This document shows, in pieces, positions 1 through 5,010 of a stretch of DNA of 5,408 nt. Made by a program: the position numbers and the translations under genes. The stretch comes from SAR202 cluster bacterium (GTDB taxonomy: Bacteria > Chloroflexota > Dehalococcoidia > UBA3495). The stretch spans positions 1 through 5,408 of the forward strand of contig VFHG01000269.1 of the NCBI GenBank assembly GCA_009392075.1, in the 5' to 3' direction. The notes below the pieces were generated by a model. That model did not search any database and had not been told where the DNA came from. It saw only the letters and a list, made by a program, of their open reading frames with translations. Position 1 is the first letter of the stretch. Each line of letters opens with the position of its first letter.

Positions 1-21
1 TGTCAGCTGTCAGCTGTCAGC
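1..21. repeat. Tandem heptad repeat, three copies of TGTCAGC
   Basis: Three perfect head-to-tail copies of the 7-bp unit TGTCAGC (1-7, 8-14, 15-21) are read directly. The last base overlaps the stop codon of the minus-strand gene ending at 21, so the array starts at that gene's 3' end and may continue beyond the window edge. A degenerate version of the same unit lies at 1145-1175, at the other end of this gene. No T-run accompanies it, so it is not called a terminator. Whether it is a dispersed genomic repeat family is inference. Confidence 0.8.
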
Positions 22-1121
22 TAATTGTGACAACCTCGGGCTGTGATGTCCCAGACCACTTCCACTTTGCCTTTGCGTAGGCCGATGAATCGGTCCCAGC
101 GGCTGACCATGGCGTCTTGTTGGGCCGGTATTAGCAGAACTTGGTCGCCAACTTTCAGGCTGGTTCCGGATTCAAGCTTGAATACGGCGTGGTCACTGTC
201 CAGAGCCGCCACGGTGACACCGGGCCGTTCAAACACGGTGGGCATGCCGGATAGGCTGCTCACGGCGCGTACACCGGCATCGCCAATGGCAATTCCAGGC
301 CTGGGTGTGCTGATGATAGTGGTTAGAATCTTCCCCGCGTAATGGAACTCGGTCATGTAGCTGTAGTGGGTCTCCATCATCAGGTAGCTGCCGCCCTGAA
401 TCTCGGTGACGCCGGGAATCTCCGCGGCCACATCATAGCTCCAGGTTTCCCCCGTAGATACGATATCCATGGGGATACCCTGCCCCTCAATGGCATCCTT
501 GAGGTCGATCACACCCTTGATGGCGCGGTTGGCCTCCACAGCCCGGTCTTCCCTGTCGGGCATGTCGGGAATCGTCTGGTGGCTCATCACCCCTCGGAAG
601 CGCAACCCGGGCAGTGATGCGATCTCCTTGGCCAGGGCCACTCCTTGGTCGATCTCCCGCACTCCACAACGGCGCAGACCGGTCTCCAGTTCGATGATCA
701 CCCCAATTTCCACCCCCCGGGCCGTTGCCGCCTTGGAGATATCTCTGGCGTTGGCTGCTTGTTCGCAGGCCACCAGCAACTCGGCCTGGTCGGCCAGGGA
801 GCAGAGTCTGTCGATCTTCATCAGTTCCACTATCTCCGAGGTGATGAACACGCTGGCAATTCCACCGTGGACCATGACCTCGGCCTCGGACACCTTGGCA
901 GCACAGACCCCGCCCACGGTCCCGCCCCGGCGTATCTGCCGGTGGGCGATGGCCGGGGTCTTGTGGTTCTTGGCATGGCCCCGGAGCTTGGCGGTGGTGC
1001 CGGCATACGTGCTGGCAATGACGTCAATATTGTTGTCCAGATCGTCCATGTCAATAATCAGACAAGGAGTGTCCAAGTCTTCAATGGGCGTTCCAGGAGT
1101 GGGCCGGTAATGTTCGTTCAT
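21..1121 (-). CDS. D-threonine aldolase / D-serine dehydratase (DSD1) family PLP protein, active-lysine copy
   Basis: This is a 366-residue protein of fold-type III (alanine racemase-like N-terminal TIM barrel, about residues 15-260, then a D-serine dehydratase-like C-terminal domain, about 265-360). Length is normal for the family. The N-terminal TPCLIIDMDDLDNNI matches the usual entry strand. R47-G-H-A-K51-N-H-K matches the PLP-lysine signature RPHxKTHK, so K51 should form the internal aldimine. RRCGV (150-154), the SxGxTxxY-like stretch at 222-229 and DAG (281-283) also fit. Members cleave or dehydrate beta-hydroxy amino acids such as D-threonine, D-serine or 3-hydroxyaspartate. The metal-site motif PxHxD/C reads PAQQD (332-336): the histidine is glutamine (Q334), although D336 is kept. 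A classical metal-dependent reaction is therefore uncertain, and no substrate is assigned. The ATG start is preceded by GGAG with 8-nt spacing. It is probably cotranscribed with the paralog 57 bp upstream. Confidence 0.88.
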   Translation of the reverse strand: MNEHYRPTPGTPIEDLDTPCLIIDMDDLDNNIDVIASTYAGTTAKLRGHAKNHKTPAIAHRQIRRGGTVGGVCAAKVSEAEVMVHGGIASVFITSEIVELMKIDRLCSLADQAELLVACEQAANARDISKAATARGVEIGVIIELETGLRRCGVREIDQGVALAKEIASLPGLRFRGVMSHQTIPDMPDREDRAVEANRAIKGVIDLKDAIEGQGIPMDIVSTGETWSYDVAAEIPGVTEIQGGSYLMMETHYSYMTEFHYAGKILTTIISTPRPGIAIGDAGVRAVSSLSGMPTVFERPGVTVAALDSDHAVFKLESGTSLKVGDQVLLIPAQQDAMVSRWDRFIGLRKGKVEVVWDITARGCHN

Positions 1122-1178: not shown

Positions 1179-2291
1179 CTACGCCAGTCTTCCTCGGGCC
1201 GAGATGGGCCAGAAGCCTTCCAGTTTGCCGTTCTTGGCAGCGCGGAAGTAATCGTACTGATTGACGCTGACGCCCAGTTCGTAGGGCACTAGCCAGGCTT
1301 TGTCGCCGGGGTTCAGTTTGCTCTGGGCGTCGCCTTCCAATTCGACGATGCCGTGCTCGGCGCTGAACCGGGTGGCTTCCGCGCCGTCGATCCCCTCCAG
1401 AACGGGCCTGCCTTGGTCAGGGGCCGTTGCCTTATGGCCCGCGTCTAAGACGGCCATTCCATCTATTGGGTGGGAGATCACCGACGCCAATATCTTGGCC
1501 GCAGGGTTAAGATCGGGGAGGAAGGACTTCAGCCGGTGGTCCATCAGCGGATACCGTCCGGCGCGGACCTCGGTTACTCCGGCCATTTGAATGGCTTGGG
1601 CATAGCAGTGGGCGCCGCCGACGCTGACCACTTCGATGGACAATCCGCCCTGTTCCATCGCCTCTTTGCTATCCAGAATCACTTGAAGGTTGGCTTTGGT
1701 CTGGGATTCATGTTCTGATGGATCGTCGCCACCCTTGGGGCCTGGTACCGAACCCATGATGCCGACCAGCTTCAACCCTGGCAGTCCGTCGACTCTCTGG
1801 GTTAGCTTCAATGCCTCGACACCTGGGGATATCCCGCAACGGCCCATGCCGGCGTCGATCTCAACCAAGACCTGCAACTCCACTCCGGCCGCCACGGCCC
1901 CAGATGATAGTTGCTGAGCGTTGTCCAGGTTGTCGACGGCGATACCGATGCTTGCCTGGGCGGCCAGGGCGCAGAGCCGCCGAATCTTGGAGACGGTCAC
2001 CACCTGGTTGGCCAGTAGAATGTCGTCGAACCCCGAGTTAGCAAAAACCTCGGCCTCACCCAGAGTGGTCACGGCGATGCCGCCCACAGTGCCGCCGGCG
2101 TCCAGTTGCCGATGGGCTATCTGGGGGCACAGGTGGCTGGTAACCACAGGCCTGGCTTTGGCCGTCCTTGCCGCGAAATAGCCCTGGAATGTCTGAATGT
2201 TCTTGTCCATGACATCCAGGTCCAGGACCAACGCCGGTGTATCCAGTTCTTCTACCGGAGTGCCCACCGGCTGAAAAATGGGACGTTCCAT
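1179..2291 (-). CDS. DSD1 / D-threonine aldolase-like paralog lacking the PLP lysine (probable pseudoenzyme subunit)
   Basis: This 370-residue protein is homologous to the one at 21-1121 and aligns with it without gaps for about the first 150 residues (shared GTPxExLDTP, IAHRQ, GGTVGG, RRLC, RCG). It has the same alanine-racemase-like barrel plus D-serine dehydratase-like C-terminal domain (about 268-365; DAGHK at 283-287, AEHG at 311-314). The PLP signature is destroyed: R47-P-V-V-T51-S-H-L replaces RPHxKTHK, so threonine (ACC codon) sits where the paralog has K51. The metal motif is also gone, with PYELG (336-340) in place of PxHxD. The reading frame is intact, so it looks like a conserved protein that is not a standard PLP enzyme. 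It may be a structural or regulatory partner, or may bind another ligand. The ATG at 2291 is chosen over a GTG at 2315 because GGAG lies 9 nt upstream and because the N-terminus then aligns residue for residue with the paralog. It is first in the minus-strand operon. Confidence 0.85.
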   Translation of the reverse strand: MERPIFQPVGTPVEELDTPALVLDLDVMDKNIQTFQGYFAARTAKARPVVTSHLCPQIAHRQLDAGGTVGGIAVTTLGEAEVFANSGFDDILLANQVVTVSKIRRLCALAAQASIGIAVDNLDNAQQLSSGAVAAGVELQVLVEIDAGMGRCGISPGVEALKLTQRVDGLPGLKLVGIMGSVPGPKGGDDPSEHESQTKANLQVILDSKEAMEQGGLSIEVVSVGGAHCYAQAIQMAGVTEVRAGRYPLMDHRLKSFLPDLNPAAKILASVISHPIDGMAVLDAGHKATAPDQGRPVLEGIDGAEATRFSAEHGIVELEGDAQSKLNPGDKAWLVPYELGVSVNQYDYFRAAKNGKLEGFWPISARGRLA

Positions 2292-2483: not shown

Positions 2484-3722
2484 ATGCCAGGACTACTAGA
2501 AGGGGTCAAGGTATTGGACCTTACCCACTATATCGCCGGGCCATATTGCACCAAACTGCTGTCTGGACTTGGCGCGGACGTAATCAAAGTTGAGCGGCTC
2601 GGAGCGGGTGACGGAATGCGGTGGCTGGGGCCGTTTTCTTCTGGAGCGGAGGTCATTACCGGAGATTCTGCTCCGGAAGATGGGGCTTGGTTTCTTTATC
2701 TGAATACCGCCAAGCAGAGTTTGGCGTTAGACCTCAAGTCATCCAGTGGACGGCGGGTGATTCTGGAGCTGGCTGCCAAGGCTGACATCCTGGTGGAGAA
2801 TTTCGCCCCCGGCGGCATGGACAGTTTGGTGCTTTCTTATGACGACCTTAAGAAAGCCAATCCGGCTTTGGTGGTGACGTCTATCTCCAACTTTGGCCAG
2901 ACCGGCCCCTACCGCGACTGGAAAGCGTCGGAGTTGAACCTCTACGCCATCGGCGGATTAATGAATATCACCGGAGAGCCGGAGCAGGAGCCATTGAGAG
3001 AGGGCATGCCTTTGGCCCAGTTGGGCGCGGGACAGAACGCTTTCGCCGCTACCATGGCCGCGCTTATGTACGCCGAGGAGACCGGCGAGGGCCAGCAGAT
3101 CGATGTGTCCATCGCCGAATACGCCACCAACATCTTGGAAAACGCGCTGATGCAGTTCAGCTACTCGGGCCAGGAATATAGCCGTGTGGGCAACCGGGGC
3201 TACGGCCGCGCCGCCTGGGGCATCTACCCCTGCCAGAACGGCCACGTTGGCATCATCGCCGGGCCGGACCAACGGTGGCCGGAGGTAGCCCGGATCATGG
3301 GAAGAGAAGAGCTGTCCGACCCCCGGTTCACTTCCCGGGCCGGGAGACTAGAGCACGCCGACGAAGTGGATGCCTACATGCTGCCCTTCCTCATCGACAA
3401 CGACAAGATAGACATCTTCAAGGCCGGGCAGGAAAGCGGGTTAGGCTTCAGCTTCGTCGCCACCATGGAAGACATCCTTCAGATGGAGCAGCTTCTGGAC
3501 CGGGACTATTTCGTTGAACTGGATCATCCGGTGGCTGGAAAGCTAACCTACCCCGGCGCTCCAATCATGCCCGAAGACAGCGTCGATGCCTGGGTCTTCA
3601 AACGGGCGCCGCTGCTTGGGGAACATACCGCCGAGGCGCTAACGTCCTGGCTGGGCTACTCAAGAGCGCAGGTGTCGGAGTTGGTGGACCAGGGCGTGCT
3701 GGCTCAGAGCGAGGGGGTGTAG
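2484..3722 (+). CDS. CaiB/BaiF (class III) CoA-transferase family protein lacking the catalytic aspartate
   Basis: This 412-residue protein has the normal length and domain order of family III CoA-transferases. The N-terminal Rossmann-like part is marked by GVKVLDLTHYIAGP (7-20) and LGADVIKVER (29-38). A conserved ENFAPG stretch (105-110) and GQTGPY (138-143) follow. GEGQQIDVS (201-209) marks the centre, and LLGEHTAEAL (377-386) with the GV-ending tail marks the C-terminus. The family moves CoA between carboxylic acids through an aspartyl-CoA thioester. The aspartate expected in the P-L-G-D-x-x-A-G motif is glutamine here: PLAQLGAG at 176-183, Q179, codon CAG. Alone it should not use the standard mechanism. 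It is followed after 4 bp by a homolog that keeps the aspartate, which suggests a non-catalytic subunit of a heteromer. Some known transferases of the family, such as BbsE/BbsF and SmtA/SmtB, are made of two different subunits. Confidence 0.9.
   Translation: MPGLLEGVKVLDLTHYIAGPYCTKLLSGLGADVIKVERLGAGDGMRWLGPFSSGAEVITGDSAPEDGAWFLYLNTAKQSLALDLKSSSGRRVILELAAKADILVENFAPGGMDSLVLSYDDLKKANPALVVTSISNFGQTGPYRDWKASELNLYAIGGLMNITGEPEQEPLREGMPLAQLGAGQNAFAATMAALMYAEETGEGQQIDVSIAEYATNILENALMQFSYSGQEYSRVGNRGYGRAAWGIYPCQNGHVGIIAGPDQRWPEVARIMGREELSDPRFTSRAGRLEHADEVDAYMLPFLIDNDKIDIFKAGQESGLGFSFVATMEDILQMEQLLDRDYFVELDHPVAGKLTYPGAPIMPEDSVDAWVFKRAPLLGEHTAEALTSWLGYSRAQVSELVDQGVLAQSEGV
3712..3717 (+). promoter_or_regulatory. 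Ribosome binding site inside the end of the preceding gene
   Basis: AGGGGG lies 9 nt before the ATG at 3727, within the last codons of the upstream CoA-transferase gene. It supports that ATG over the in-frame ATG at 3748, where GAGAG is too close. The arrangement suggests translational coupling of the pair. Confidence 0.6.
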
Positions 3723-3726
3723 CGGC

Positions 3727-5010
3727 ATGCAGAAACCTCCCGAGAGAATGCCACTCAAGAATTATCGCGTATTGGACCTATCCCGCATCTGGGCGGGGCC
3801 TTATTGCACGAAACTGTTCGCCGACATGGGCGCTGAGATCATCAAGATGGAGTCCCTTAGCGTCTACGACTCCCACCGGGGTCCAATCAACCCGGCCAAA
3901 GGCATCGCCGCATACCCCGACGGGGAACCCGGAGATGAGCCCTGGAACCGAAACGGCTGGTTCAATTGCCTGCATATGTCCAAGTACGGCGTGACGCTGG
4001 AACTGAAAAAGGCCGAAGGCCGAAGGGTCTTCGAGCGGTTGGTGTCTATCAGCGATATCGTCATCGAGAATTTCCGGCAGGGAAGCCTGGAAAGGCTGGG
4101 CTATACCTACGAGGAATTGCGGAAACATAGGCCCGACCTGATCTATGTCTCCATGCCGGCCTTCGGCAACACCGGTCCCTGGAAAGGTTATCTTGGCTAC
4201 GGCATCGGCCAGGAGCAGCTATCCGGCATGGCCCACATGACCGGCTACCGGGGCGAGGGGCCCATGAAGTCAGGAATCAACCACGGAGACCCCATCACCG
4301 GCTCCCACGCCGCTGGGGTCCTGATGGCGGCCCTGCGCCACCGCCGCCGCACCGGCAAGGGCATGTACATCGATGTCTCACAGCAGGAGTCCTCGGTTGC
4401 ATTGATGGGGCCGGAGGTGCTGGCCTATCAGATGACCGGGCAGGAACCGGAACGCCGGGGCAACCGCTCGGGTTGGTACGCTCCGGCCAACAGCTACCCC
4501 TGCGCCGGAGAAGACCGTTGGGTGACCATCGCGGCCACCAACCAAGACCAGTGGCGGAGCCTGGCTCAGGCCATGGATGCCGCCGGACTGGTCGACGACC
4601 CTCGGTTCGCCACCAACGAAGCCCGTCGTGAAAACCACGACGACCTGGACCAGATCATCTCGGAGTGGACCATCGGTCTAGAGGCCTATGATTTGTCCAG
4701 CAAACTGCAACGGTTGGGCGTCCCCGCCGGACCCGTACTCCGTGGCCCAGATCTGTTACAAGACGCCCACTATAAAGACCGGGGTACTTTCGTCACAGTT
4801 GACCACCCACAGGTGGGGCCCAAGCAGTATCCGGGGATACCGTGGAAGATGTCAGCAACCCCCGGAGTAGTCCGCTGGCCGTCGCCAACACTGGGACAGC
4901 ACAACCGTGAGGTCTACGGCGAACTGTTAGGACTGACCGGGCTGGAGATCGACCAACTGGACCAGACCGGGATCATCGGGACCAAGCCCACCGGCTCGCG
5001 AATCATCTAG
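3727..5010 (+). CDS. CaiB/BaiF (class III) CoA-transferase, catalytic copy
   Basis: This 427-residue family III CoA-transferase has the expected order of motifs: YRVLDLSRIWAGP (13-25), MGAEIIKMES (34-43), IENFRQG (113-119), NTGPW (148-152), TGKGMYIDVS (209-218), GVPAGPV (331-337) and a C-terminal LGQHNREVYGELLGL (389-403). The catalytic aspartate is present: D188 in HGDPITG (187-192 region), so an aspartyl-CoA intermediate is possible. It carries a longer loop at about 45-80 (YPDGEPGDEPWNRNG near 63-77) than the neighbour, which is seen in one subgroup of the family. The acid substrate and CoA donor cannot be read from sequence. The gene starts 4 bp after its paralog, whose matching residue is glutamine, so the two probably form one enzyme. 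A cytoplasmic location is expected because no signal peptide or membrane segment is visible. An MFS transporter gene follows closely. Confidence 0.92.
   Translation: MQKPPERMPLKNYRVLDLSRIWAGPYCTKLFADMGAEIIKMESLSVYDSHRGPINPAKGIAAYPDGEPGDEPWNRNGWFNCLHMSKYGVTLELKKAEGRRVFERLVSISDIVIENFRQGSLERLGYTYEELRKHRPDLIYVSMPAFGNTGPWKGYLGYGIGQEQLSGMAHMTGYRGEGPMKSGINHGDPITGSHAAGVLMAALRHRRRTGKGMYIDVSQQESSVALMGPEVLAYQMTGQEPERRGNRSGWYAPANSYPCAGEDRWVTIAATNQDQWRSLAQAMDAAGLVDDPRFATNEARRENHDDLDQIISEWTIGLEAYDLSSKLQRLGVPAGPVLRGPDLLQDAHYKDRGTFVTVDHPQVGPKQYPGIPWKMSATPGVVRWPSPTLGQHNREVYGELLGLTGLEIDQLDQTGIIGTKPTGSRII

What the first reader, a model, noticed from the sequence alone, without database searches (positions are those of the whole stretch)
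1179..2291. DSD1-like paralog with threonine in place of the PLP lysine
With the ATG start at 2291 the two DSD1-like proteins align without gaps through their N-terminal half, and residue 51 is lysine in one and threonine in the other. The flanking histidine and lysine of RPHxKTHK are also changed (V49, L54), and the C-terminal metal motif is lost (PYELG). The frame is intact and the rest of the fold is well conserved. This points to a maintained non-PLP member, either a pseudoenzyme partner or a protein with a new ligand.
Basis: partly seen in the sequence, partly recalled or inferred. Interest (0 to 1): 0.7.

Follow-up and report, generated by a model that had tools for sequence, protein, structure and literature searches.

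The report
Half-dead enzyme partner sharing active site
Two neighbouring bacterial genes encode a matched pair of related proteins, one keeping the lysine that holds the vitamin B6 cofactor and the other without it, which most likely supplies the missing side of the same active site.

Summary
In detail: protein B (1179-2291, minus strand) has threonine where its neighbour A (21-1121) and the solved relatives it was aligned with have the PLP lysine. It is not a decaying gene. In one Chloroflexota order (SAR202-type genomes) B and A belong together: 99 of 100 genomes with A also have B. A keeps the lysine in 106 of 106 sequences; B has it in 3 of 101. Losses are complementary. In the solved D-threonine aldolase the second subunit's beta-domain sends two loops into each active site; these are the DxGxK and SxEH motifs. 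Every B sequence readable there keeps both, even at 20-44% identity to the window's B, while A has let them decay. Best explanation: an A:B heterodimer with one working site, A's barrel plus B's loops; the reciprocal site is dead. In the window's clade B's former PLP pocket is frozen as T51/R243/R246/L254, so it may hold something new. Heterodimer formation and the reaction are inferred, not shown. The closest functional analogue is serine palmitoyltransferase LCB1/LCB2.

The parts
1179..2291 (-). Gene B: DSD1/D-threonine-aldolase-like protein, 370 aa, Lys-less subunit (stop codon included; alternative GTG start at 2315)
2139..2141 (-). Codon of T51 in B, at the position of the PLP lysine (AxDTA Lys59)
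1563..1565 (-). R243 of B, replaces AxDTA Gln249 (PLP ring N contact); R in 120 of 120 close homologues
1554..1556 (-). R246 of B, replaces AxDTA Ser252 (PLP phosphate contact); R in 119 of 120 close homologues
1431..1433 (-). K287 of B in DAGHKA, = AxDTA Lys297 in loop 295-298, which enters the partner's active site
1353..1364 (-). S310-H313 of B (SAEH), = AxDTA 320-323 in loop 319-323, which enters the partner's active site
21..1121 (-). Gene A: paralogue with the PLP lysine, 366 aa, directly downstream of B (57-bp gap)
969..971 (-). Codon of K51 in A (PLP lysine)
267..269 (-). R285 of A where AxDTA has loop Lys297 (lost)
189..200 (-). D308-H311 of A (DSDH) where AxDTA has 320-323; SxEH motif lost
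114..122 (-). Q334-D336 of A at the metal-ligand positions (AxDTA His347, Asp349): His to Gln, Asp kept

Best explanation
B and A are the two subunits of an obligate heterodimeric fold-type III PLP enzyme. Shown by computation: A and B are two clades split by an old duplication; they are inherited together across an order of Chloroflexota; A keeps the PLP-binding barrel and has lost the two beta-domain loops, while B keeps those two loops without a readable exception and has lost the PLP lysine and most PLP contacts. Established for the solved relative AxDTA: each active site is the barrel of one subunit plus those two loops of the other. Inferred: A and B pair head-to-tail, so that A's barrel (K51, R151, H181, T226, Q242, G244, S245, Y253) with B's loops (G285-A288 and F309-H313) makes the one working site, while B's barrel with A's loops is the dead site. 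Once the second site was dispensable, its two halves decayed. The reaction is inferred only loosely: PLP chemistry on an amino acid, probably not the classical metal-assisted aldol cleavage or dehydration, since the metal His and the AxDTA base His193 are missing in A.
For: Co-occurrence: 99 of 100 genomes with A have B; the exception, G311, has A starting at base 1 of its contig and no B elsewhere. Of 102 genomes with B, two lack A (G002, G317; B at a contig end) and a third, G437, has an A fragment running off the contig. In 77 adjacent pairs the upstream gene is B and the downstream gene A. Residues: A K59 77 of 77, R157 77 of 77; B K59 3 of 75, but K297 and S320-A321-E322-H323 75 of 75, the two rows without letters there having both motifs when read directly. 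Out of sample: 21 further B genes found only because they sit upstream of A, 20-44% identical to the window's B, have K in 0 of 19 readable and keep D.G.K in 21 of 21 and S.EH in 20 of 21, the last reading X-AEH at a masked residue. Fewest changes on the tree: loop positions 297 and 320-323 0 each in B, 12-25 in A; PLP lysine 0 in A, 20 in B. Random-set tests: P=0.012 (barrel set), 7e-5 (loop set), joint 0 of 100,000. These loops are the cross-subunit ones in AxDTA (PMC4401734 section 13). The 3 pairs in which B keeps K also keep K297, E322 and H323 in A, against 2 of 70 others.
Against: No physical evidence of a heterodimer: no multimer prediction was available and model coordinates could not be read. 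The cross-subunit geometry rests on one relative, 32-33% identical in the structural alignments. A whole-domain test of canonical-residue retention was not significant (P=0.12). In the window's own clade B's former PLP pocket is more conserved than its barrel (P=0.0095), which plain decay does not predict. The Fisher test ignores kinship, and its three K-bearing rows stand for two places in the tree. A and B are not neighbours in G272, G279, G458 (about 4 kb apart, convergent) or G295 (different contigs), and G493-G496 carry an extra A copy with no adjacent B found.
Confidence: 0.8

Rival explanations
1. B is a separate protein with its own new ligand: the old PLP pocket (T51, R243, R246, L254, H228, C229) now binds an anion or metal, and the link to A is only operonic.
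For: In the 120 close homologues the nine former PLP-contact positions are more conserved than the barrel (entropy 0.296 vs 0.875, P=0.0095); H228, C229 and R243 are invariant there.
Against: Across the order the same positions change freely (20 changes at the lysine position, 28 at Tyr187), while the loop positions that serve a partner's site do not change. A has lost the loops it would need as a homodimer of the AxDTA kind. The genes stay in the same genome even where they are not neighbours.
Confidence: 0.12
2. B is an allosteric or stabilising pseudoenzyme of A that does not lend residues to A's active site (as suggested for activation of trypanosomatid deoxyhypusine synthase).
For: Constant pairing and purifying selection fit any obligate partner.
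Against: It does not predict that B keeps exactly the two loops that in AxDTA reach the neighbouring active site, nor that A has lost them.
Confidence: 0.06
3. B is a decaying duplicate on its way out.
For: Lysine and metal motif lost; the barrel evolves faster in B than in A (18.4 vs 10.9 changes per column).
Against: Present in 99 of 100 A genomes, dN/dS 0.08-0.21, loop motifs kept at 20-44% identity.
Confidence: 0.02

Closest known systems
D-threonine aldolase / beta-hydroxyaspartate aldolase BhcC / D-serine dehydratase DSD1 family (PF01168 + PF14031, fold type III)
   Same: Fold and domain order; both proteins match it; composite active site in AxDTA.
   Different: AxDTA has lysine, metal pair and loops in one chain and forms a dimer of two like chains; here lysine and loops are split over two paralogues, and the metal His is missing in both.
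Serine palmitoyltransferase LCB1/LCB2 (fold type I; fold type recalled)
   Same: Heterodimer of homologues; only LCB2 has the PLP lysine; LCB1 lacks it but has other residues predicted to act in catalysis; a heterodimer with a single active site is the working hypothesis (PMC3794620, passages).
   Different: Eukaryotic, membrane-bound, different fold and reaction.
Trypanosomatid deoxyhypusine synthase with a catalytically dead paralogue
   Same: Complex of a catalytically impaired and an inactive subunit (PMC3663545, search listing with the start of the abstract only).
   Different: Not a PLP enzyme (recalled); the text shown speaks of activation, not of a lent half-site.
Antizyme inhibitor (ornithine decarboxylase-like, fold type III; recalled, no call)
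   Same: A fold-type III protein without PLP function.
   Different: A regulator that binds antizyme, recalled as keeping the lysine; not a lent half-site.

Membership tests
DTA/DSD1 family (PF01168 + PF14031) | Alanine-racemase-like barrel plus D-ser_dehydrat domain | tested here: met
DTA/DSD1 family (PF01168 + PF14031) | PLP Schiff-base lysine | tested here: not met
   B has T51, so B is not filed as a PLP-binding member; A has K51 and meets it
DTA/DSD1 family (PF01168 + PF14031) | Metal ligands His and Asp/Cys near the C-terminus | tested here: not met
   B E338/G340, A Q334/D336; order-wide His in 1 of 75 B and 4 of 75 A
DTA/DSD1 family (PF01168 + PF14031) | Loops 295-298 and 319-323 reaching the other subunit's site | tested here: met
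   Sequence motifs only: B keeps both wherever readable; A does not meet it
3-hydroxy-D-aspartate aldolase BhcC (NF045642) | NCBIfam equivalog cut-off 690 bits | tested here: not met
   A 259.5 bits, B 220.4 bits
Composite-site heterodimer with a dead subunit (SPT-like kind) | Two homologous subunits always encoded together | tested here: met
   99 of 100 A genomes have B; the exception has A at a contig start
Composite-site heterodimer with a dead subunit (SPT-like kind) | Complementary retention of one composite site | tested here: met
Composite-site heterodimer with a dead subunit (SPT-like kind) | Physical heterodimer with one PLP per dimer | not testable with these tools
   No multimer prediction; needs purification

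The most novel reading that the evidence does not exclude
A bacterial fold-type III PLP enzyme has evolved into an obligate asymmetric heterodimer: one catalytic site, plus, in the window's clade, a second former PLP pocket turned into a conserved anion- or effector-binding site (T51, R243, R246, H228, C229) that controls the first.
Probability: 0.25. Interest if true: 0.85.

Novelty: new variant of a known kind. Interest (0 to 1): 0.72.

Why it matters
Complementary decay of the two halves of a shared active site is sequence evidence for how symmetric homodimers become asymmetric heterodimers, and this case can be followed across about 100 genomes, including three pairs that still look two-sited. 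If true, the labels that databases carry for such genes (alanine racemase, D-serine deaminase-like, 3-hydroxy-D-aspartate aldolase) mislead for B and are incomplete for A in a group of marine bacteria, and A expressed alone would probably be inactive.

Tried and rejected
Decaying gene: rejected by dN/dS, pairing and kept loops. Threonine as a functional residue in its own right: not favoured, because T is fixed only in the window's clade; elsewhere the residue is S, G, E, H, D, N, A, Q or K, with T again in L024, L025 and L028. Replacement lysine: no barrel lysine conserved in B that A and canonical relatives lack. Operon partners as a clue to the reaction: neighbours differ between clades (48 loci with flanks), so the pair itself is the unit; the CoA-transferase genes sit beside it in 7 of these 48 loci. 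Whole-domain retention test: not significant, P=0.12. Phylum-wide look with one narrow query: 1 of 251 genomes at E <= 1e-100. Class-wide with the A profile: 8 of 393 genomes better than 1e-130, the other genomes' matches at 1e-110 or weaker (rounded up, the best of them is 8.4e-110). Plasmid search: 121 records, all below 60% identity; of the 20 rows shown 19 are labelled BhcC or DSD1 family and one record has no annotation. dN/dS used stop-to-stop frames, so a few upstream codons are included; YN00 failed for 16 of 20 comparisons and NG86 was used; the comparisons share sequences. Rows dropped: L007-L015 as duplicates of L001-L005; L093 left out of the pair counts because both its genes are canonical; three fragmentary rows left out of the tree (164 of 167 used). 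A first reading that B of G458 is split was wrong: it is one open frame of 409 codons with both motifs.

Full report
What is in the window. Two minus-strand genes, B (1179-2291) then A (21-1121), 57 bp apart, encode DSD1/D-threonine-aldolase-like proteins (PF01168 + PF14031 for both). They are 35% identical. On the other strand lie two family III CoA-transferase genes and the start of an MFS transporter gene. No whole genome is held for the window. The closest of six loci found in named genomes is a SAR202 MAG (L001, 98% identity for B).

The observation. T51 of B aligns with a lysine in the three solved chains shown and corresponds to Lys59, the PLP lysine of Alcaligenes xylosoxidans D-threonine aldolase, AxDTA. 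In the 120 best of 1751 database homologues at E <= 1e-20 the residue is T in 118 and S in 1; one does not cover it. The 120 best homologues of A have K in 120 of 120. The metal motif is changed in A as well, so that part of the finding does not set B apart.

How widespread. A profile of close B proteins matched 120 of 250 genomes of the order of G003 (a MAG labelled Dehalococcoidia) at E <= 1e-80, some of these matches being canonical relatives. DNA was read in 30 loci given and 60 stretches fetched around further matches. In the loci, 78 adjacent same-strand pairs were found; one (L093) is two canonical paralogues and is left out below. In the other 77, rows were named B or A by position (upstream or downstream), and the tree then put the two names in two separate clades (two B rows and one A row, fragmentary, were not in the tree). 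The PLP position is K in 77 of 77 A; in B it is S 25, T 16, G 12, E 10, H 4, K 3, D 3, A 1, Q 1, with 2 truncated.

Complementary motifs. [quoted passage not shown] The 4v15 sequence has GLKS (in DAGLKS) at 295-298 and INDEH at 319-323, that is, the DxGxK and SxEH motifs; the letters at the other positions named in the paper agree. Of B, 75 of 75 readable rows keep K297 and 75 of 75 keep S320, A321, E322 and H323; the two rows without letters there (L077, L087) have both motifs when read directly. Of seven B genes outside the pairs, seven have DxGxK and six SxEH, the seventh being cut by the contig end. A has K297 in 14 of 75, E322 in 20 of 75 and H323 in 44 of 75. For the barrel it is the reverse: A has R157 in 77 of 77, T or S233 in 76 of 76, Q or E249 in 76 of 76 and G251 in 76 of 76, while B has R157 in 36 of 76 and Q249 in 24 of 76. 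AxDTA Tyr187, which stacks on PLP, is His in 76 of 76 A. Not every contact is so clear: A keeps S or T252 in 71 of 76 and Y260 in 56 of 75, and B keeps T233 in 59 of 76.

Tests. On a quick tree built without the trait columns, A (100), B (99) and the canonical rows (98) are each one side of a branch by SH-aLRT; the program warns of long branches. Fewest changes: PLP position 0 in A, 20 in B; loop positions 297 and 320-323 0 each in B and 14, 20, 25, 12 and 13 in A. Against random column sets of the same domain, the nine PLP contacts named in the paper favour A with P=0.012, the nine loop positions favour B with P=7e-5, and none of 100,000 draws reached both. B's barrel evolves faster than A's (18.4 vs 10.9 changes per column) while the beta-domains hardly differ (13.4 vs 13.0). 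A cruder test of canonical-residue retention by whole domain was not significant (P=0.12). The three K-bearing B genes (L051, L053, L056) retain R157, Y187, T233, Q249, S252 and Y260 too, and their A partners retain K297, E322 and H323: 3 of 3 against 2 of 70 others (Fisher P=1.6e-4, not corrected for kinship). They branch near the base of B in two places, on forks of modest support, so K against other letters needs two changes.

Prediction met out of sample. Searching the order with the A profile gave 100 of 247 genomes at E <= 1e-112. Twenty-one of these had no B in my earlier set. Reading the DNA around A in 20 of them (L156-L175) showed a diverged B directly upstream in all 20; the 21st is G311, below. 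A further truncated B lies upstream of A in L182, from the class search. These 21 B proteins are 20-44% identical to the window's B. The PLP position is K in none of 19 readable; D.G.K is present in 21 of 21 and S.EH in 20 of 21, the last reading X-AEH at a masked residue; the 29 A rows, told apart by nearest relative, all have K. In total K stands in 3 of 101 B (75 in pairs, 7 single, 19 new) and in 106 of 106 A (77 + 29).

Genomes without a partner. A without B: 1 of 100 (G311; A starts at base 1 of its contig, and no B was found elsewhere). B without A: of 102 genomes with B, G002 and G317 have none, each with B at a contig end; G437 has the first 134 residues of A running off the contig. 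Not neighbours but both present: G272 and G279, G458 and G295. G493-G496 have an extra A copy with no adjacent B found, one of them at a contig start.

A complication in the window's clade. In 120 B and 120 A proteins, entropy at the nine PLP-contact positions is 0.296 in B against 0.875 for its barrel (P=0.0095), with R243 120 of 120, R246 119 of 120 and L254 120 of 120; B's loops 0.094 against 0.698 for the part of the chain after the barrel (P=0.0009); A's PLP positions 0.044 against 0.438 (P=0.0034); A's loops are not constrained beyond the background (P=0.48). So in this clade B's old pocket is frozen in a non-PLP form rich in Arg and His. It may be structural or may hold a new ligand.

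Mechanism proposed. An A:B head-to-tail dimer would have one working site, A's barrel plus B's loops. Steps shown: homology, co-inheritance, complementary retention; from the literature, the cross-subunit role of the loops in AxDTA. Steps inferred: heterodimer formation, PLP on A only, requirement of B for activity, and the reaction.

Literature. Full-text searches of open-licence papers brought up no report of such a pair: one search gave two trypanosomatid papers, none, two SAR202 papers. The latter, seen through term searches of the main text only, have no occurrence of 'alanine racemase' or 'pyridoxal' (PMC6946804; PMC10444878). Subscription papers are mostly not held, so a report elsewhere is possible. 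Serine palmitoyltransferase LCB1/LCB2 is the closest functional analogue (PMC3794620, passages). PMC4401734 was seen as abstract, passages and section 13; PMC6411801 and PMC10818641 as passages; the chicken D-serine dehydratase paper was not held.

Noticed in passing
window 2484-3722 and 3727-5010 (+): The two adjacent family III CoA-transferase genes show the same enzyme/pseudoenzyme look: one keeps GDPITG with the Asp that I recall as catalytic in this family, the other has AQLG[AT]G (Gln in place of Asp), in 7 of 7 loci that hold the pair. They may also be a heteromer with one dead subunit.
   Followed up: partly
L051, L053, L056: Pairs in which B still has the lysine and A still has K297/E322/H323: probable living relics of a two-site ancestor.
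   Followed up: partly
L176, L177, L178, L181: Extra A copies without an adjacent B in genomes G493-G496 that also carry a normal pair; in L176 the upstream side is cut by the contig start.
   Followed up: no
L058:5619-8288: B lies in an open frame of 889 codons, so it may be fused to an N-terminal domain or simply have a long open upstream frame.
   Followed up: no
L098 (G458): B (one open frame of 409 codons) and A lie about 4 kb apart and converge, instead of forming a tandem pair.
   Followed up: partly
window 1-21: Three head-to-tail copies of tgtcagc at the left end of the window, just past the end of gene A (seen by eye).
   Followed up: no
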